NCBI GenBank assembly: GCA_017883385.1
Contig: JADGNQ010000042.1
Coordinates: 1 to 38,402, forward strand
DNA: 38,402 nt
Direction: 5' to 3'
Source: Candidatus Sulfotelmatobacter sp.
Lineage (GTDB): Bacteria > Acidobacteriota > Terriglobia > Terriglobales > Acidobacteriaceae
The notes beneath the pieces were generated by a model. The model did not search any database and had not been told where the DNA came from. It was given only the letters and a program-made list of their open reading frames with translations. Positions 15,057-37,865 of this stretch are shown here, one piece after another. The position numbers and the translations under genes were made by a program. Within the stretch, counting starts at the first letter, position 1. Each line of letters opens with the position of its first letter.

Positions 15057-16367
15057 TCAGCCAACCTCTTCGGTCCACGTTTCGAGATTCTTCTTCACTA
15101 GCGCCATGAACTGGTCGGCAACGGCGCCGTCGATGAGGCGGTGGTCGTAGCCAAGCGTGAGGTGAACGACAGAGCGGATAGCAATGGAGTCGGTGCCGTC
15201 TTTGTCGGTAATCACCATGGGCTGCTTGGTAATGCCGCCGACGCCCATGATGGCGGAGTTCGGCTGATTGATGATGGGTAAGCCGAAGACGGCGCCGAAC
15301 TGGCCGGGGTTGGTGACAGTGAACGTAGAGCCCTCAACGTCTTCGGGCTTGAGTTTCTTGGTGCGGGCGCGCTCGCCGAGGTCGGTGATGCCGCGTTGCA
15401 AGCCGAGAAAATTCAGGTCTCCGGCATTCTTAAGGACAGGAACGATGAGTCCCCAGTCCAGTGCGACGGCGATGCCCATGTTGATCTGGCGGTGATAGTG
15501 GATATTGTCGCCTTCGAGAGTGGCGTTGATGATCGGCCACTGCTGCAGGGCGATGACCGCAGCGCGGACGAAGAATGGCATGAAGGTGAGGCGGGCGCCG
15601 TGGCGCTGCTCGAATCCGCCTTTGTGCTTGGCGCGCAGGTTGACGATGCGGGTGAAATCCACTTCGTACATGCAGTGGACGTGAGCGCTGGTGCGGCGGG
15701 ACTCGATCATGCGCTGAGCGATGATCCTGCGCATGTTCGTCAGGGGAACGAGGTCGCCGGGATATGGGGCGGGAGTGGCCGGGCGCGGAAGCGGAGCGGC
15801 GGCTGCGGGAGGCGCCTCGCTTCGCTCAGCGGGACGGACGAATGCGTCCGTCCCCACATGAGATCCCTGGTTTTCGATGAAGGACATGATGTCCTGCTTG
15901 GTGATGCGGCCGCCGAGTCCGGTACCGGGGACTTGCGAGAGGCTAACGCCGTGCTCGCGGGCGATCTTGCGGACCAGCGGGGAGGAGCGGGCTTCTTCGT
16001 CTTCTTCGTGAGCGGCGGGCACGGCGGCGGGCGGTGGAACTGGGGCGGCTTTCTTCTCTTCCTTTGGTGACGCGGGCACAGGCGCGGGCGCGGGCTTTGC
16101 CGGCGCGGCGGCAGGCTTGGCGGCTTCGCCATCCACGGCGATCGTGCCGACGACGGTGTTCACGCCGACGGTCGTTCCTTCGGTAACTTTGATTTCCTGC
16201 AAAATGCCAGAGGCCGGGGCGGGAATTTCGGCGTCGACCTTGTCGGTGGAGATTTCGAAAAGAGGTTCATCTCGCTGGACTTTATCGCCGGGCTTCTTCA
16301 GCCACTTGGTAATAGTGCCCTCAACGATGGATTCGCCCATCTGGGGCATGATGATGTCAGTTGGCAT
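15057..16367 (-). CDS. 2-oxoacid dehydrogenase E2 (dihydrolipoamide acyltransferase)
   Basis: 436 aa. An N-terminal lipoyl domain (1-78, lipoylated K43 in STDKVDAE) is followed by an Ala/Pro linker (79-128), a peripheral-subunit-binding domain (about 130-168, RSSPLVRKIAREHGVSLSQVPGTGLGGRITKQDI), a second linker and the acyltransferase domain (about 200-436) with the catalytic DHRLIDG motif (H409, D413). It transfers the acyl group from lipoate to CoA. It is the last gene of the leftward complex operon (lpdA, lipB, E1-alpha, E1-beta), and an AAGGA precedes the ATG. Oddity: residues 170-184 (HVGTDAFVRPAERSE) are encoded by a copy of the dispersed palindromic repeat, inserted in frame in the second linker. 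Whether the substrate is pyruvate or a branched-chain oxoacid cannot be settled. Confidence 0.95.
   Translation of the reverse strand: MPTDIIMPQMGESIVEGTITKWLKKPGDKVQRDEPLFEISTDKVDAEIPAPASGILQEIKVTEGTTVGVNTVVGTIAVDGEAAKPAAAPAKPAPAPVPASPKEEKKAAPVPPPAAVPAAHEEDEEARSSPLVRKIAREHGVSLSQVPGTGLGGRITKQDIMSFIENQGSHVGTDAFVRPAERSEAPPAAAAPLPRPATPAPYPGDLVPLTNMRRIIAQRMIESRRTSAHVHCMYEVDFTRIVNLRAKHKGGFEQRHGARLTFMPFFVRAAVIALQQWPIINATLEGDNIHYHRQINMGIAVALDWGLIVPVLKNAGDLNFLGLQRGITDLGERARTKKLKPEDVEGSTFTVTNPGQFGAVFGLPIINQPNSAIMGVGGITKQPMVITDKDGTDSIAIRSVVHLTLGYDHRLIDGAVADQFMALVKKNLETWTEEVG
15816..15860 (-). repeat. CATGTGGGGAC palindromic repeat, in-frame copy inside E2
   Basis: On the minus strand it reads CATGTGGGGAC, then the palindrome GGACGGACG/CGTCCGTCC, then a CGCTGAGCGAAGCGAG tail. 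It is the same family as the copies at 17171, 20367, 34371, 35114, 36202 and 37806, but lies within the coding sequence and preserves the frame. Confidence 0.9.
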
Positions 16368-16453
16368 GATTTCCTTCCACGCGCGCCCACAGTTCAGATC
16401 AAAGGGACCTTAGCGCAAACGCATATTATAGCGTTTGGGAGAGTTGATGCGAG

Positions 16454-16475
16454 CGGCGCGGCTAAAGCCGTGCCG
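16454..16475. repeat. GGCGCGGCT-NNAGCCGTGCCG repeat
   Basis: GGCGCGGCTAAAGCCGTGCCG is an imperfect palindrome between the E2 start and the cytochrome c stop. A close relative, with TTTC in place of TAAA, lies at 30324-30346, so it is a second dispersed family. Confidence 0.6.
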
Positions 16476-16500
16476 TCCTTTGTTTCGGCGAGAGTCGGCC

Positions 16501-17067
16501 CTAGTGGTGCTCGTGCTTCTCTCCGCCTTCCTTCTTTTCGTCACCTGTGCTGGGAGCAACGCCGAAGCTTGTTTTCCAGTATTCCTGCACAGCGGGCGGG
16601 AGTTTATCGAGGTGGGAGAGCAGCATCGTAATCTTCCACATGTCCTGTTCGCTAAGGGTCTTGTCCCAGGAGGGCATGCCGGTGTAACGGACGCCGGTGC
16701 GGATGGTGTAGAAGATGTGCCACTCCGGGTCGTCCGGCGGATCGGAGATCAGGTTCGGGGGCGGCGGATAAAAAGAAGCGACCAGCGATGAGGGCTTGCG
16801 GTCGAGGCCTCCGTGGCAGAGGGCACAGTTCATGGTATAGACCTTCATGCCGTCTTCCAGATTCTGATCGGTGGGCGTCAGCGGGTTGGTTACACGTGGA
16901 GCGTGGCGCTCCATGGAAGCATCGACGGCGCCCATGGCGATGCGGCGCTCAAGGTGCGGGGGCGCAACGTTGGCAGCCGTGGGGAAGAAACCGAGCGTGG
17001 CGAAGCCAAGCCCGCCCAACAGCAGAACCAGAAGCGTGACGATAACACCGAGAGTGAACTTGCCCAT
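16501..17067 (-). CDS. membrane-anchored mono-haem cytochrome c
   Basis: 188 aa. An uncleaved-looking N-terminal helix (5-29, TLGVIVTLLVLLLGGLGFATLGFF) anchors it to the membrane with the domain outside. The haem motif is CALCH (C81, C84, H85), and M131 in TGMPSWDKTLSEQDMW is the likely sixth ligand, a class I cytochrome c signature. The C terminus is Lys/Glu/His-rich (EHH end). The start is supported by GGAGG 4-5 bases upstream. It should shuttle electrons at the periplasmic face. Its position between E1-beta and E2 genes, on the same strand, is odd because the enzyme complex is cytoplasmic and delivers electrons to NAD. Confidence 0.92.
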   Translation of the reverse strand: MGKFTLGVIVTLLVLLLGGLGFATLGFFPTAANVAPPHLERRIAMGAVDASMERHAPRVTNPLTPTDQNLEDGMKVYTMNCALCHGGLDRKPSSLVASFYPPPPNLISDPPDDPEWHIFYTIRTGVRYTGMPSWDKTLSEQDMWKITMLLSHLDKLPPAVQEYWKTSFGVAPSTGDEKKEGGEKHEHH

Positions 17068-17170
17068 GAGGCCTCCGGAATGGACTATTGTTGCAGATGG
17101 AGCGAGGCGCGCGCCAATTTCGGGACCAGCGACTGGTCGGGAGTGTACAAGAAATTGACAAGGTGACGCA

Positions 17171-17215
17171 GTCGAGCTTCACTCGGCGGACAGCCGAGGG
17201 CGGCTGTCCCCACAT
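17171..17215 (-). repeat. CATGTGGGGAC palindromic repeat, intergenic copy
   Basis: On the minus strand: CATGTGGGGACAGCCG, CCCT, CGGCTGTCC, then a GAGTGAAGCTC tail. It lies 16 bases after the E1-beta stop, before the cytochrome c gene. Its strong stem could attenuate or process the operon transcript. Confidence 0.9.
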
Positions 17216-17231
17216 GATGTTTGCTGTTACT

Positions 17232-18203
17232 TCAATACGCTTTCAAGCGGCGGGCTTCGCGGACCACGTCTTCCACCTTGGGCAGATAGTGGTGTTCCTG
17301 GGGCGGCGAGAACGGGACCGGCGAGTCTAATCCTGCAATGCGGACGACGGGACCATCGAGATCATCGAAGGCCTCTTCGTTAATGATGGCGGCGATTTCG
17401 CCGGCGAGGCCTCCAGTGCGGGAGTGCTCGTGGAGGATGATGACTTTGTTTGTTTTCTTTACCGTTTGCGCGATGGCTTCGCGATCGAGCGGGGAGACGG
17501 TGCGCAGGTCGAGGATTTCGAGATCGATTCCATCGTTCTTCAAAATCTCTGCAGCTTCCAACGCGGTGTGGACCATCGCGGCGTAAGTGATGATGCTCAG
17601 GTCGCGTCCTTCGCGGGCAATGTTAGCTTTTCCGATAGGGACGACATAGTCTTCCGCTGGGACCTCTCCCTTGATGCGACGGTAGAGATACTTGTGCTCA
17701 AAGAAGATGCAAGGGTTGTTGTCGCGGATGGCAGCCTTGATCAGGCCCTTGGCGTCGTAAGGCGTGGCCGGACAGATGACCTTGAGGCCGGGATTGTGGA
17801 CGAACCACATCTCCGGATTCTGCGAGTGGAAGGGGCCGCCGTGGACGTATCCGCCGCTGGGCCCGCGCAGGACGAGCGGGGCGGGCGCGCCCCACAGGTA
17901 GTGCGTCTTCGCGACCATGTTAGAGATCTGGTTGAAGGCACAGCCAATGAAGTCCATAAACTGAAATTCGGCGACGGGGCGCATGCCGGTGAGCGACGCT
18001 CCGAAGGCCGCGCCTACAATGGCGGACTCGGCGATGGGCGTGTCGATAACACGCTCGGCGCCAAAACGGTCGATGAAACCATCCGTGACTTTGAAGGCGC
18101 CGCCGTAAATGCCGATGTCTTCACCAAGGCAGAAGACGGTTGGGTCGCGGTCCATTTCTTCCCAGATTCCCTGGCGGATGGCTTCGAGGTAAGTGAGTTG
18201 CAT
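17232..18203 (-). CDS. 2-oxoacid dehydrogenase E1 component, beta subunit
   Basis: 323 aa from ATG 18203; a TTG at 18215 would add four residues. It has the transketolase-like pyrimidine-binding domain (about 1-175: LGEDIGIYGGAFKVTDG, DTPIAESAIVGAAFGASLTGMRPVAE) and the C-terminal domain (about 190-323: RDLSIITYAAMVHTALEAAE...LDLRTVSPLD...EHSRTGGLAGEIAAII). Length and motifs fit the PdhB/BkdAB/AcoB family. With the alpha subunit it forms the thiamin-diphosphate heterotetramer that decarboxylates the oxoacid and acylates lipoyl-E2. It is separated from E1-alpha by a 126-aa unknown gene. Confidence 0.95.
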   Translation of the reverse strand: MQLTYLEAIRQGIWEEMDRDPTVFCLGEDIGIYGGAFKVTDGFIDRFGAERVIDTPIAESAIVGAAFGASLTGMRPVAEFQFMDFIGCAFNQISNMVAKTHYLWGAPAPLVLRGPSGGYVHGGPFHSQNPEMWFVHNPGLKVICPATPYDAKGLIKAAIRDNNPCIFFEHKYLYRRIKGEVPAEDYVVPIGKANIAREGRDLSIITYAAMVHTALEAAEILKNDGIDLEILDLRTVSPLDREAIAQTVKKTNKVIILHEHSRTGGLAGEIAAIINEEAFDDLDGPVVRIAGLDSPVPFSPPQEHHYLPKVEDVVREARRLKAY

Positions 18204-18219
18204 AGTCGGTCTCAAGGTT

Positions 18220-18600
18220 TCAAAGTTTCGCCACTTTGACGTCTATCTCTTCAACACACGTTTGCACAGTCGAGTAATTTGAAGCTGTGTGCCATTCTCC
18301 CGCCGAAGCCTGAATAGAAACCTCAGAGAGTTCGTCAACCCGGAGGCATCGCCAATTGCTCGGCGATCCATCAGGCTTCAAACCTCCGCTGCTACCTCCC
18401 GCAAACTGATAGAGCAAAGCCTGCGCCCGACCATTTTTCTTACCTATGACATGAGGGCACATCTCGCGCACATGTCCCCGATAGCTGGCGACAACTATTT
18501 CTCTGTCGATGATCGCCTGACGAATCACAGCGTAGACCTCGTCGATCGACCGAAATGCGGCGGCCATTGTGGACTCAACTTCCATCACCGCGTTTGCCAT
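18220..18600 (-). CDS. conserved-looking protein of unknown function between E1-alpha and E1-beta
   Basis: 126 aa from ATG 18600, which overlaps the last base of the E1-alpha stop (TGATG), so translation is coupled; a GTG at 18603 is possible. The sequence has an N-terminal helix (DEVYAVIRQAIIDREIVVASYRGHVREM) and then REMCPHVIGKKNGRAQALLYQFAGGSSGG, with NWRCLRVDELSEVSI further on. The layout vaguely recalls WYL-type ligand modules. Cys and His residues (CPH, WRC, HTA, QTC) could bind metal. Role in the dehydrogenase complex unknown. Confidence 0.75.
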   Translation of the reverse strand: MANAVMEVESTMAAAFRSIDEVYAVIRQAIIDREIVVASYRGHVREMCPHVIGKKNGRAQALLYQFAGGSSGGLKPDGSPSNWRCLRVDELSEVSIQASAGEWHTASNYSTVQTCVEEIDVKVAKL

Positions 18601-19910
18601 CACCGGAGATGCACGGCGGCTTCGGTTTGCTTGAAGGTGCTGGTTCCCTTCTTGACCTTTGGCGCCCCGTACTTCGGCTTGATCTCATGGCAGCCGTCTT
18701 CACAGTAAACTCCGCCTTCGGCGGATTCTGGCGTCGGCATGGGGGAGTTCACAGCAGTCTCGCGCTCGGCCTCTATTTCAGTTTCCACGGACGCGATGAG
18801 TTCTTCATTCTCTTTTGCGGTCAGCCACTTCTTTTCTCTTACCAAGTAATTCTCAAAGCGCGCGATGGGATCGCGCTTCTTCCAGAACTCGAACATTGGC
18901 TTCGGCACATAGCTGGCGGCGTCGTGGATGGCGTGGCCTTTCATGCGCATCATTTTGGCTTCGATCAGGGTGGGGCCCTCGCCGCGGTGGGCGCGATCGA
19001 CGGCCTCGTGGGCTGCGTCGTAGACCTGACAGGCGTCGGTGCCGTCGACGATGACGCCGGGGATGCCGTATCCGATGGCGCGTTCGGCGAGGTCTTTGCA
19101 GCGGTACTGCAATTCCGACGGCGTCGAGTAGGCCCAGAGATTGCTTTCAACGAAGAGCACGAGGCCGAGATTCTGCACGGCAGCGAAGTTGATGCCTTCG
19201 TAGGTGACGCCGGTGGATTGGCCTCCATCACCGATGTAGGTCATGACGGCGAGGTTGCGTCCCTGCAGGCGCGCGCCGAGGGCCACGCCAGCCATCACGG
19301 GGATGAGATCGCCGAGCATGGAGATGGGCGAGACCATGTTGCGCCTTTCAATGTCGCCGAAATGTGAGGTGCCGTCGCGGCCCTTGGTGGGCGAGTCGGC
19401 TTTGGCCATGTACTGCATCATGGTGTCGCTGGCAGCGAAGCCGCGCACAAGCAGCGAACCCTGATTGCGGATCATCGGTGCGAACCAGTCATCTTCATCG
19501 AGCGCGTAGGCGGAGGCGCAGGAGCAGGCTTCCTGGCCGAGTCCGAAGTAGACTCCGCCGACGACCTTGCCCTGTTTGTACAGATTCTCGAGCGCGACCT
19601 CCATTTTGCGGTTCAGCAACATCCAGCGGTAGATCTCGATGCATTGCTTCTTGTCGAGATACTTGGAGTCGCGGATGGGCGGGACGGGGGCGTTCAGGTC
19701 GCCTTCGACTTCGTAGCGGACGTGCTCGTGGCCCAGGCGGTCTTTTTCGATGCGCTGGCGGACGGTGAAGTTGGGGTGCTCCAGTCGGTAATCAGGAATG
19801 GAGTAGGTGCGGAGGTTGGTTGCGTTGGGCTTGGCCTTCGACGAAGAAGCCCCGTTGCGCGGACGGTTCCCGTTAGAGGTCGGCTTGGACTTCGCTTTCC
19901 TGATCCCCAT
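18600..19910 (-). CDS. 2-oxoacid dehydrogenase E1 component, alpha subunit
   Basis: 436 aa. After a basic, low-complexity N terminus (1-35) comes the thiamin-diphosphate domain: GGVYFGLGQEACSCASAYAL (118-137), RGFAASDTMMQYMAKADSPTKGRDGTSHFG and the TPP/Mg motif GDGGQSTGVTYEGINFAAV (227-245) ending in VESN. The phosphorylation-loop-like segment RMKGHAIHDAASY is present. The C terminus extends beyond the usual end with a CEDGC pair and a Lys-rich tail. It catalyses oxoacid decarboxylation with E1-beta. The operon order suggests a branched-chain or pyruvate complex; substrate specificity cannot be decided by eye. Confidence 0.94.
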   Translation of the reverse strand: MGIRKAKSKPTSNGNRPRNGASSSKAKPNATNLRTYSIPDYRLEHPNFTVRQRIEKDRLGHEHVRYEVEGDLNAPVPPIRDSKYLDKKQCIEIYRWMLLNRKMEVALENLYKQGKVVGGVYFGLGQEACSCASAYALDEDDWFAPMIRNQGSLLVRGFAASDTMMQYMAKADSPTKGRDGTSHFGDIERRNMVSPISMLGDLIPVMAGVALGARLQGRNLAVMTYIGDGGQSTGVTYEGINFAAVQNLGLVLFVESNLWAYSTPSELQYRCKDLAERAIGYGIPGVIVDGTDACQVYDAAHEAVDRAHRGEGPTLIEAKMMRMKGHAIHDAASYVPKPMFEFWKKRDPIARFENYLVREKKWLTAKENEELIASVETEIEAERETAVNSPMPTPESAEGGVYCEDGCHEIKPKYGAPKVKKGTSTFKQTEAAVHLR

Positions 19911-20008
19911 GTGACGACGGCGCGAGAGCGCGATGTATTGATGGTATCGCGAGAGTGGGGGAGACGGCTAGGGCCGCGCGGGCAGGGACACCAGCGCCAC
20001 ACAACCGG

Positions 20009-20872
20009 TCACGCCCTGGTGGTCTCGTCTTCTTTGTGGAGTTGGCGGAGTTCGGTGGGCGGTTTCAAAGGCACGCCGACTGCACGGCCAAGCAGATCGT
20101 CTAGAGTTTCAATCCAGAGCATCTGACTTTGGAAGACCACCCCGAAATTGCGGGAGATGGATTCGGCGACGGCACTCAGGCTGAGGCCCTTGCCAAGTTC
20201 CTGCTGCATCGACGTGACGGGCTTCGACGTGATGCCGCAGGGGACGATGAGGTTGAAGAAACTGAGGTCGGTGTTCACGTTGAGGGCGAAGCCGTGCGAG
20301 GTGACGAAGCGGGAGATGTGGACACCGATGGCGGCGAGTTTTGACTCGGGCCCGGTCTCGGGCGGCCTCGCTTCGCTTCGGCGGACAGCCGAGGCGGCTG
20401 TCCCCACATGGGCATTGGTGACTTCAGCATCCGTCCAGACTCCGGTGAGACCCGGAACGCGCTTGGTCGGGATCGCAAAGTCGGCACAGGTTCGGATGAG
20501 GATTTCTTCCAGGCGGCGGACGAAATCTACTGCGCCTAGCGTTTTGCGCAAGGCGGACGAGGCGTCCGCCCCGACACGGGCGTAGCCGCGCAGATCGAAG
20601 ATAGGATAGCCGACGATCTGGCCGGGGCCGTGAAAGGTCACGTCTCCGCCGCGATCGCATTCGAACAGCTCAACGCCGCGCTGGGCCAGGATTTCGGGCG
20701 AGGCCACTACGTTCGCTGCTTTTGCGTTGCGGCCCAGCGTGATGACTGGGGAGTGCTCTAGCAGGAGGAGGACGTCACCGATGTTTTCTTCTTTGCGCAG
20801 CGCGACCAGTTTCTGCTGCAGGCGGAGGCCGGTGGCGTAGTCGACGGTGCCGAGTTGGATGACCGAGATCAA
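20009..20872 (-). CDS. lipB: octanoyl-[ACP]:protein octanoyltransferase LipB
   Basis: 287 aa from a TTG at 20872 preceded by GAGGGA; no ATG exists nearby, and a longer reading would pass through repeat DNA. The signature RGGDVTFHGPGQ (74-85) and catalytic pair K178 (KLAAIG) and C212 (PCGITS) are intact. It moves octanoate from acyl carrier protein to the lipoyl domains of E2, fitting its place between lpdA and E1-alpha; no lipA is in the window. Oddity: residues 155-169 (HVGTAASAVRRSEAR) come from an in-frame copy of the dispersed palindromic repeat, inserted just before the catalytic Lys strand. Homologues normally pass almost directly from the GVWTD region to KLAAIG. Confidence 0.93.
   Translation of the reverse strand: MISVIQLGTVDYATGLRLQQKLVALRKEENIGDVLLLLEHSPVITLGRNAKAANVVASPEILAQRGVELFECDRGGDVTFHGPGQIVGYPIFDLRGYARVGADASSALRKTLGAVDFVRRLEEILIRTCADFAIPTKRVPGLTGVWTDAEVTNAHVGTAASAVRRSEARPPETGPESKLAAIGVHISRFVTSHGFALNVNTDLSFFNLIVPCGITSKPVTSMQQELGKGLSLSAVAESISRNFGVVFQSQMLWIETLDDLLGRAVGVPLKPPTELRQLHKEDETTRA
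20367..20410 (-). repeat. CATGTGGGGAC palindromic repeat, in-frame copy inside lipB
   Basis: On the minus strand it reads CATGTGGGGACAGCCG, CCT, CGGCTGTCC, then GCCGAAGCGAAGCGAG. It is read in the same frame as the copy in E2 (CAT GTG GGG AC. = HVGT). Confidence 0.9.
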
Positions 20873-34370: not shown

Positions 34371-34415
34371 ATGTGGGGACAGCCGCCCTCGGCTGTCCGT
34401 CGAGCGAAGCTCGAC
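34371..34415 (+). repeat. CATGTGGGGAC-family palindromic repeat
   Basis: ATGTGGGGACAGCCG, CCCT, CGGCTGTCC, then a second hairpin, GTCGAG-CGAAG-CTCGAC. It starts at the first base after the GH28 stop and may serve as its terminator. Confidence 0.85.
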
Positions 34416-35113: not shown

Positions 35114-35170
35114 CATGTGGGGACAGCGCCCTTCGGCTGTCCAGGCCGCTACGCCTTCGCGGCTGCCGGG
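35114..35170 (+). repeat. CATGTGGGGAC-family palindromic repeat
   Basis: CATGTGGGGACAGC, GCCCTTC, GGCTGTCC, then AGGCCGC-TACGCCTTC-GCGGCTGCC, the second type of tail (GGCCGC/GCGGC). Confidence 0.85.
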
Positions 35171-36201: not shown

Positions 36202-36263
36202 CATGTGGGGACGGGCGCCCTCGCCCGTCCAAGGCCGCAACGGTTTCTGTCGCGGCTGCCGCC
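36202..36263 (+). repeat. CATGTGGGGAC-family palindromic repeat
   Basis: CATGTGGGGACGGGCG, CCCT, CGCCCGTCC, then AAGGCCGCAACG and CGCGGCTGCCGCC. It lies in the divergent gap between the YqaA-like and amidohydrolase genes. Confidence 0.85.
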
Positions 36264-37805: not shown

Positions 37806-37865
37806 CATGTGGGGACGGGCGCCTTCGCCCGTCCAGGCCGCGACGGGGTTTGTCGCGGCAGCGCC
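37806..37865 (+). repeat. CATGTGGGGAC-family palindromic repeat
   Basis: CATGTGGGGACGGGCG, CCTT, CGCCCGTCC, then AGGCCGCGACG and TGTCGCGGCAGCGCC. It sits between the convergent amidohydrolase and MogA/MoaB genes. Confidence 0.85.

What the first reader, a model, noticed from the sequence alone, without database searches (positions are those of the whole stretch)
15816..20410. Same palindromic repeat inserted in frame in two enzymes of one pathway
Copies of the CATGTGGGGAC palindrome lie inside E2 (residues 170-184) and LipB (residues 155-169). Both are read in the same frame, adding HVGT-x-A peptides rich in Arg/Ser/Glu. In E2 it sits in a flexible linker; in LipB just before the catalytic Lys segment. 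This resembles the in-gene palindromic elements (RPE) of Rickettsia, a phenomenon I do not know to be described for Acidobacteriota.
Basis: partly seen in the sequence, partly recalled or inferred. Interest (0 to 1): 0.8.

Follow-up and report, generated by a model that had tools for sequence, protein, structure and literature searches.

The report
Mobile DNA hairpins inside intact genes
In one genus of Acidobacteriota, short mobile DNA hairpins sit inside conserved genes without breaking the reading frame, and the same loops of several enzymes carry different hairpin families in different species.

Summary
CATGTGGGGAC elements lie in frame in E2 (residues 170-185) and LipB (from 155). LipB also carries a second, diverged element.

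The pathway link is coincidental. The repeat is a genome-wide REP-like family (175 pattern hits). Of 120 copies examined, 14 read in frame inside 13 genes of unrelated function, in all six frames. Of these 13 genes, 7 were compared with solved homologues, and all 7 homologues lack the inserted residues wholly or in part.

The likely mover was found: a REP-associated tyrosine transposase (RAYT). The element flanks both gene ends in 9 of 9 close full-length relatives. In 21 other RAYT loci it never lies within 500 bp.

The new part is site re-use. Among 35 readable genus LipBs, one loop has 17-92 residues in 32 and 5-8 in 3. Unrelated repeat families fill it, even in well-supported sister species. 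RecG carries the element in both orientations; Tgt carries some inverted pairs. E2 is weaker: its linker length varies anyway.

It works like Rickettsia palindromic elements; membership was not tested. In-gene REPs are known elsewhere. My searches showed none in Acidobacteriota and no such multi-family loops. Mobility, translation and neutrality are inferred; repeated insertion versus exchange of lipB segments is not settled.

The parts
15816..15860 (-). REP-like element (CATGTGGGGAC head, stem GGACGGACG/CGTCCGTCC, degenerate second hairpin) in frame inside E2; peptide HVGTDAFVRPAERSEA, residues 170-185
15057..16367 (-). E2, dihydrolipoyl acyltransferase of a 2-oxoacid dehydrogenase, with the element in its linker
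   Evidence: TIGR02927
20369..20410 (-). REP-like element (stem GGACAGCCG/CGGCTGTCC, 3-nt loop) in frame inside lipB at site 2; peptide HVGTAASAVRRSEAR, ending about 9 residues before the conserved Lys (catalytic by recall)
20009..20872 (-). lipB, octanoyltransferase, likely TTG start at 20872; the open frame further upstream reads through intergenic repeats
17172..17216 (-). full intergenic copy, between a cytochrome-like gene and the E1 beta gene (both names by eye)
34371..34414 (+). full copy, apparently intergenic
35115..35146 (+). partial copy, apparently intergenic
36203..36231 (+). partial copy, apparently intergenic
37807..37837 (+). partial copy, apparently intergenic

Best explanation
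The repeat is a REP-like, non-autonomous mobile element of about 45 nt: an unpaired head ATGTGGGGAC (ATGTAGGGAC in some copies) and two adjacent DNA hairpins. It is most likely moved as a single-stranded hairpin by a dedicated REP-associated tyrosine transposase, whose own gene is bracketed by the element (inferred from anatomy, not shown biochemically). Most copies sit between genes. A minority lie in genes and are kept when the insert preserves the reading frame and falls in an exposed loop or linker; the element is nearly always stop-free in all six frames, so either orientation can be read through. E2 and LipB in this window are two such cases. In this genus a few loops (LipB sites 1 and 2, Tgt, RecG) hold different repeat families, or the same family in both orientations, in different species, so they are insertion-tolerant slots and not relics of one old insertion. 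The peptides are most likely passengers without function. Shown by sequence: anatomy, dispersal, transposase association, in-frame position, extra residues relative to homologues, different families in sister species. Inferred: single-strand transposition, translation, neutrality.
For: Dispersed: 175 hits (82 + 93, up to 2 mismatches), 0 for the reversed pattern. Genus-bound: 45 of 45 same-genus genomes (5-224 copies), 9 of 16 other genera of the family (1-9 copies), 2 of 40 further genomes (1 each); the reversed control gives single hits in 12 of 101 genomes, so single hits are noise level. Transposase: RAYT on G000 C275, NF047646 85.1 bits, cut-off 80, element at both ends in direct orientation. 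Of 30 RAYT loci, the 9 full-length matches at 63% identity or more all have the element 6-52 bp upstream and 17-34 bp downstream (93 bp in L253); two flank hits are weak (E 0.007 and 0.012). The other 21 have none within 500 bp, three of them with little sequence on one side. In genes: 14 of 120 copies show coding signal in one open frame on both sides. Extra residues against solved homologues in 7 of 7 genes searched out of 13: LipB 27 against 3, Tgt 54 against 4, MnmE 46 against 0, RecG 30 against 4, 4-hydroxybenzoyl-CoA reductase alpha 68 against 10, smaller gaps in agmatine deiminase and HypF. LipB site 2, 35 of 45 genus genomes readable: 32 hold 17-92 residues, 3 hold 5-8; A/C-type recognised in 15, B in 12, D in 4, overlaps counted. 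Sister pairs G017 (A)/G004 (B) and G023 (A)/G035 (C), SH-aLRT 97, keep similar DNA on both sides of an unrelated block. RecG: antisense in 8, sense in 3, bare 17 residues in 2, of 29. LipB model: most core blocks 93-98 pLDDT, insert blocks 54-71; TM 0.95 on 2qhs.
Against: No transposition was observed, and no empty/filled pair in near-identical strains. Site-2 family identity follows the LipB-core+E2 tree little better than chance (16 changes, shuffled mean 18.5, 27 of 300 shuffles as low), on a weak tree (4 of 44 inner branches starred). The long hairpin of family B lies in lipB in 14 of its 18 hits, so much of B there is inherited, or was exchanged between species, and not freshly inserted. 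Codon positions in 12 A-type LipB inserts vary 7/26/20, no sign of amino-acid selection; an unbroken frame is the only sign of translation. For one shared sequence, six stop-free frames have a chance of about 0.75^6 = 0.18. In 2 of the 14 in-gene calls (L095 and one L105 copy) the frame was not the best-scoring one on both sides. All relatives used for the loops are unnamed draft assemblies. In L253 the nearest downstream copy has the other orientation.
Confidence: 0.8

Rival explanations
1. Inherited alleles moved by homologous recombination: each repeat entered lipB once or a few times, and the mosaic across species arose by exchange or gene conversion of lipB segments, or by differential loss from an older composite array, not by repeated insertion.
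For: The LipB hairpin of family B lies in lipB in 14 of 18 hits, two of these by position at site 1 (G005, G025); A-type LipB inserts share a 3-nt loop and tail; family identity is scattered over the core tree; composite arrays exist (L063, L064, L069, L076).
Against: C-type, D-type and nested inserts also occur; in RecG the element is sense in G020 but antisense in the five other members of its six-row clade (SH-aLRT 94); Tgt holds single copies, inverted pairs and loops without a recognised element. Several separate insertions are needed in any case.
Confidence: 0.35
2. Domesticated peptides: the inserts are kept because the Arg/Ser/Glu-rich loops serve a function, such as docking between E2 and LipB or solubility.
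For: E2 and LipB are partners in lipoylation (recalled) and both carry HVGT peptides; 32 of 35 readable genus LipBs have a long loop.
Against: Families with unrelated peptides occupy the same loop; bare LipBs exist; the E2 peptide is in 8 of 30 E2s; codon positions show no amino-acid constraint.
Confidence: 0.08
3. Chance or misannotation: GC-rich hairpins that merely fall in open frames, with no real insertion.
For: Spurious open frames are common in this DNA; 106 of 120 copies fail the in-gene test.
Against: 0 reversed-pattern hits; in 7 of 7 genes searched the solved homologues lack most of the inserted residues; coding signal continues on both sides in one frame.
Confidence: 0.02

Closest known systems
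Rickettsia palindromic elements (RPE); passages of PMC3767692, PMC2229807 and PMC10969869 seen, Ogata et al. 2000 not seen
   Same: Palindromic repeats kept in frame inside many unrelated genes, in solvent-exposed areas; orthologues may carry different groups near one place
   Different: RPEs are 100-150 bp in those passages, which name no transposase; here about 45 nt, a linked RAYT, and families of unrelated sequence at one loop
Intragenic GTAG/CGTC REPs (Di Nocera et al. 2013, PMC3733652; sections 15 and 16 and passages read)
   Same: Short REPs translated within genes (Opitutus terrae, R. conorii and others), often DNA repair genes; here RecG, PcrA and a Y-family-polymerase-like gene. Different REPs at about one site in recB of two Xanthomonas species. 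Some copies here have GTAG at the foot of the first stem
   Different: The common form here has GTGG; no in-gene REPs of Acidobacteriota in the parts read; re-use of a loop here spans unrelated families and dozens of species
TIR repeats of TIRYT transposases with GGGGWSAS motif in Acidobacteria, incl. Koribacter versatilis (same paper, section 16)
   Same: GGGGACAG fits GGGGWSAS; tyrosine transposase flanked by a repeat that is also dispersed
   Different: In-gene copies not described in the parts read; the copies next to the RAYT here are direct, not inverted; homology to ORF1552 was not tested
REPIN/RAYT systems of Pseudomonas and E. coli (recalled)
   Same: RAYT flanked by REPs; inverted element pairs, as in the Tgt insert
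   Different: Largely extragenic (recalled)

Membership tests
REP family with cognate RAYT | Short palindrome dispersed in many copies | tested here: met
   175 hits, 0 reversed control; DNA hairpins
REP family with cognate RAYT | Transposase of the REP-associated tyrosine type in the genome | tested here: met
   NF047646 85.1 bits, cut-off 80; 5 Y1_Tnp matches in the genome
REP family with cognate RAYT | RAYT gene flanked by the REP | tested here: met
   9 of 9 close full-length RAYTs at both ends; 0 of 21 others within 500 bp
REP family with cognate RAYT | RAYT binds or cleaves the element | not testable with these tools
   needs biochemistry
GTAG REPs | GTAG tetranucleotide at the foot of the stem | tested here: inconclusive
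   common form is GTGG; GTAG in 5 of the 100 copies listed, in many G001 copies and at one flank of the G000 RAYT
Rickettsia palindromic elements | Sequence relation to the RPE families | not tested
   no RPE sequence was compared; the size differs from that in PMC3767692
Rickettsia palindromic elements | In-frame residence in many unrelated genes | tested here: met
   14 of 120 copies, 13 genes
TIR/TIRYT (GGGGWSAS) repeats of Acidobacteria | GGGGWSAS motif in the transposase-flanking repeat | tested here: inconclusive
   GGGGACAG at one flank of the G000 RAYT, AGGGACAG at the other
TIR/TIRYT (GGGGWSAS) repeats of Acidobacteria | Flanking repeats are terminal inverted repeats | tested here: inconclusive
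   nearest copies on the two sides are direct in 8 of 9 (L253 differs), but 7 of 9 also have an outer inverted copy upstream; the other 2 end too soon to tell

The most novel reading that the evidence does not exclude
A few protein loops in this genus are true recurrent landing slots: independent mobile hairpin families keep entering, nesting in and replacing one another at the same codons (LipB site 2, Tgt, RecG). Either the local DNA is a preferred single-strand target or the loop is a permanently tolerated window, making short mobile hairpins a standing generator of loop diversity in conserved enzymes.
Probability: 0.35. Interest if true: 0.8.

Novelty: new variant of a known kind. Interest (0 to 1): 0.62.

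Why it matters
For some Rickettsia elements it was left open whether different groups at one gene site mean a hotspot for insertions of different origin or one old insertion that diverged (PMC3767692, passage seen). Here unrelated families occupy one loop, and two of them (A and B) are dispersed elsewhere in the same genus, so the hotspot answer becomes directly testable, with bare orthologues and sister species as controls and a candidate transposase in hand. It would also extend translated REPs to Acidobacteriota, and it warns annotators that such odd loops in draft-genome proteins can be real.

Tried and rejected
Pathway targeting of lipoate enzymes: rejected, because 11 other genes with the element are unrelated. 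A fixed HVGT frame: rejected (5 of 14). A clean insertion in E2: not shown (linker lengths overlap). Family B as a fresh insertion in every LipB: weakened (14 of 18 long-hairpin hits lie in lipB), although its arms are dispersed in 41 of 45 genus genomes. A 'family F' (QYSVPSTQYS peptides in Tgt): 0 matches in the G000 sample, so not claimed as a repeat. Rfam: no match at gathering scores in 6 sources. Selection on the peptide by codon position: no signal. Stop-free frames as a special design: not claimed.

Limits of the counts. One search listed 100 of 175 places; I fetched regions for 98 of these (not C205 and C218), 80 regions, chosen because they hold the element, so the 120 copies per 378 kb are not a density. 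NCBIfam put 4 of 10 host proteins over the curated cut-off (Tgt, HypF, MnmE, 4-hydroxybenzoyl-CoA reductase alpha); L095 had no hit and its thioredoxin-domain name is recalled; the other five have weaker matches; RecG was named from PDB matches. LipB was readable at both sites in 35 of 45 genus genomes; 5 had no match and 5 were fragments or not fetched. E2 loops: 30 genomes. Tgt 27 and RecG 29 of 30 fetched loci each. Tree labels for L013, L017, L022 and L028 were set by eye, L018 (27 unassigned residues) was labelled 'none', and composite sites were given one label; five long site-2 loops stay unassigned.

Full report
1. The observation. CATGTGGGGAC occurs six times exactly in the window and eight times with one mismatch, against 0.63 expected. 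Copies in E2 and LipB read HVGTDAFVRPAERSEA and HVGTAASAVRRSEA in the same frame, at residues 170-185 and from 155. LipB also holds a second, diverged element of sub-type GGGGCGGACG at 20550-20579. The 11-mer is the head of a larger element: a typical copy folds as DNA into two adjacent hairpins behind the unpaired head (-18.5 kcal/mol, z = -6.3); the E2 and LipB copies keep hairpin 1 and have a degenerate hairpin 2.

2. A dispersed family with a candidate mover. The window's genome (6.8 Mb, 446 contigs) has 175 hits to the head-plus-stem pattern at up to 2 mismatches and none to the reversed pattern. A related, looser pattern is found in 45 of 45 same-genus genomes (5-224 copies), in 9 of 16 other genera of the family (1-9 copies) and in 2 of 40 further genomes (1 each); its reversed control gives single hits in 12 of 101 genomes, so single hits mean nothing. 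The genome has 5 Y1_Tnp matches. One, on C275, is a REP-associated tyrosine transposase by NCBIfam (NF047646, 85.1 bits, cut-off 80), and the element stands at both its ends in direct orientation. Among 30 RAYT loci fetched, the 9 full-length matches at 63% identity or more carry the element 6-52 bp upstream and 17-34 bp downstream, in L253 93 bp. The copies nearest the gene are direct to each other in 8 of 9; in L253 the nearest downstream copy is turned round and a direct one follows at 216 bp. Two of these flank hits are weak (E 0.007 and 0.012). Seven of 9 also have an outer inverted copy upstream. The 21 other loci, among them one short match at 63% (L271), have no copy within 500 bp; three of them have little sequence on one side. 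Di Nocera et al. 2013 (PMC3733652, sections 15 and 16 and passages read) describe acidobacterial tyrosine transposases with GGGGWSAS repeats; GGGGACAG fits that motif, and some copies have GTAG at the stem foot.

3. In-gene copies. I fetched 80 regions around 98 of the 100 places listed. With the window this is 377,730 bases, in which nhmmer finds 120 elements. A codon model, requiring coding signal in one open frame on both sides, accepts 14 of 120; in 2 of the 14 the frame is not the best-scoring one on both sides. They lie in 13 genes: E2, LipB, Tgt (two inverted copies), an aminotransferase, a Y-family-polymerase-like protein, HypF, a thioredoxin-domain protein (name recalled, no NCBIfam hit), agmatine deiminase, a Dpp5-like peptidase, MnmE, 4-hydroxybenzoyl-CoA reductase alpha, PcrA and RecG. 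Seven copies are sense and seven antisense; five of the seven sense copies use the HVGT frame; all six frames occur. Open frames of 1000 nt or more alone cover 217,815 of the 377,730 bases, so copies are strongly depleted from genes. Near-full copies are stop-free in 95-100% per frame against about 75% for shuffles, but for one shared sequence this has a chance of about 0.18.

4. They are insertions. In 7 of 7 genes searched (of 13) solved homologues have fewer residues at the place: LipB 27 against 3 (1w66), Tgt 54 against 4, MnmE 46 against 0, RecG 30 against 4, 4-hydroxybenzoyl-CoA reductase 68 against 10, with smaller gaps in agmatine deiminase and HypF. Not all inserted residues come from this element; MnmE also holds another repeat-like stretch. 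The LipB model (39 aligned sequences) has mean pLDDT 87.5; most core blocks are 93-98, the site-1 block 63, the site-2 blocks 54-71 and the C-terminal tail 51-66. It matches 2qhs with TM 0.95 on the target. The inserts are therefore predicted as flexible loops on an intact fold. E2 is weaker: linkers with the peptide run 39-52 residues (8 of 30), without it 29-44 (22 of 30).

5. Loops used again and again. In 35 readable genus LipBs, site 2 is bare (5-8 residues) in 3 and 17-92 residues long in 32; A/C-type elements are recognised by profile in 15, family B (GTCATCC-GAGCG arms) in 12, D in 4, overlaps counted, one more by the C motif alone, and 5 long loops stay unassigned. L009 and L010 carry a further in-frame 24-nt insert inside the A hairpin loop. 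Site 1 is 8-9 residues in 23 and 14-36 in 12. Outside the genus, 6 of 14 LipBs have 6-10 residues at site 2 and 8 have 16-33, so loop tolerance is not confined to the genus. Family B is itself dispersed, in 41 of 45 genus genomes, but the long LipB hairpin of B lies in lipB in 14 of 18 hits, so B in LipB is largely inherited or exchanged. In a tree of LipB core plus E2 without the inserts (quick method, 4 of 44 inner branches starred), sister pairs G017/G004 and G023/G035 (SH-aLRT 97) differ in family, and their DNA is closely alike up to both edges of an unrelated block. Family identity needs 16 changes in 35 genus rows; the shuffled mean is 18.5 and 27 of 300 shuffles are as low. RecG (29 of 30 loci) has the element antisense in 8, sense in 3 and a bare 17 residues in 2; the rest are unassigned. 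Tgt (27 of 30 loci) has 35-73 residues throughout, with the A element recognised in 10, four of them inverted pairs.

6. Mechanism. Best reading: single-stranded hairpins moved by the flanked RAYT, random or loosely targeted landing, loss of most in-gene insertions, survival where the frame is kept and a surface loop tolerates it. Anatomy, association and in-frame position are shown; mobility, translation and neutrality are inferred. The strongest rival for the mosaic is exchange of lipB segments between species, which may act alongside. I see no sign of selection on the peptides (7/26/20 minority letters by codon position in 12 LipB inserts).

7. Known context. RPEs (passages of PMC3767692, PMC2229807 and PMC10969869) and in-gene GTAG/CGTC REPs (PMC3733652) are the precedents; the latter paper notes repair genes and one shared site in Xanthomonas recB. 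Searches for Acidobacteria with REP terms (7 papers listed, 2 opened), RAYT and REPIN with Acidobacteria (the same 2), Acidobacteriota with palindromic insertions (none), in-gene REPs (listing only apart from PMC3733652) and shared-site insertion (none) showed no report of in-gene elements in this phylum; most subscription papers are not held. Phylum: the best named LipB relatives are Acidobacteriota assemblies, the top one 64% identical; the genus is unnamed here.

Noticed in passing
genus genomes, places listed: Family B repeats keep constant arms (GTCATCC-GAGCG / GTCGA-GGA-C), but in the listed copies the central hairpin mostly differs in sequence from copy to copy while staying self-complementary. 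Unexplained.
   Followed up: partly
L009 and L010, lipB site 2: A 24-nt repeat-like piece sits in frame inside the loop of the A hairpin: an insertion within an insertion.
   Followed up: partly
L077 lipB site 1; G025 C230 227-500: The family B hairpin typical of lipB site 2 also occurs at site 1 (G005) or apparently at both sites (G025), as if it had moved within the gene.
   Followed up: no
L153:782-2281 (MnmE): Besides the element, a second repeat-like peptide RTDPALSLSKG lies in the same insertion.
   Followed up: no
L180 (Granulicella sp.) lipB site 2: A different insert with a tandem LHPILTDE duplication at the same loop in a named other genus.
   Followed up: no
window:20873-21012: The spacer upstream of lipB carries two other repeat types (CACAGAGGACACGGAGG and CTTCGCTTCGCTCAGGATGACA), each seen again elsewhere in the window.
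   Followed up: no
L099, L101, L111, L131, L134, L135, L142, L154 element flanks: Several copies seem to lie in a longer unit with flanks like CAGTTCGCGGAA before and GGCAAACTGAG after the element, perhaps a larger MITE.
   Followed up: no
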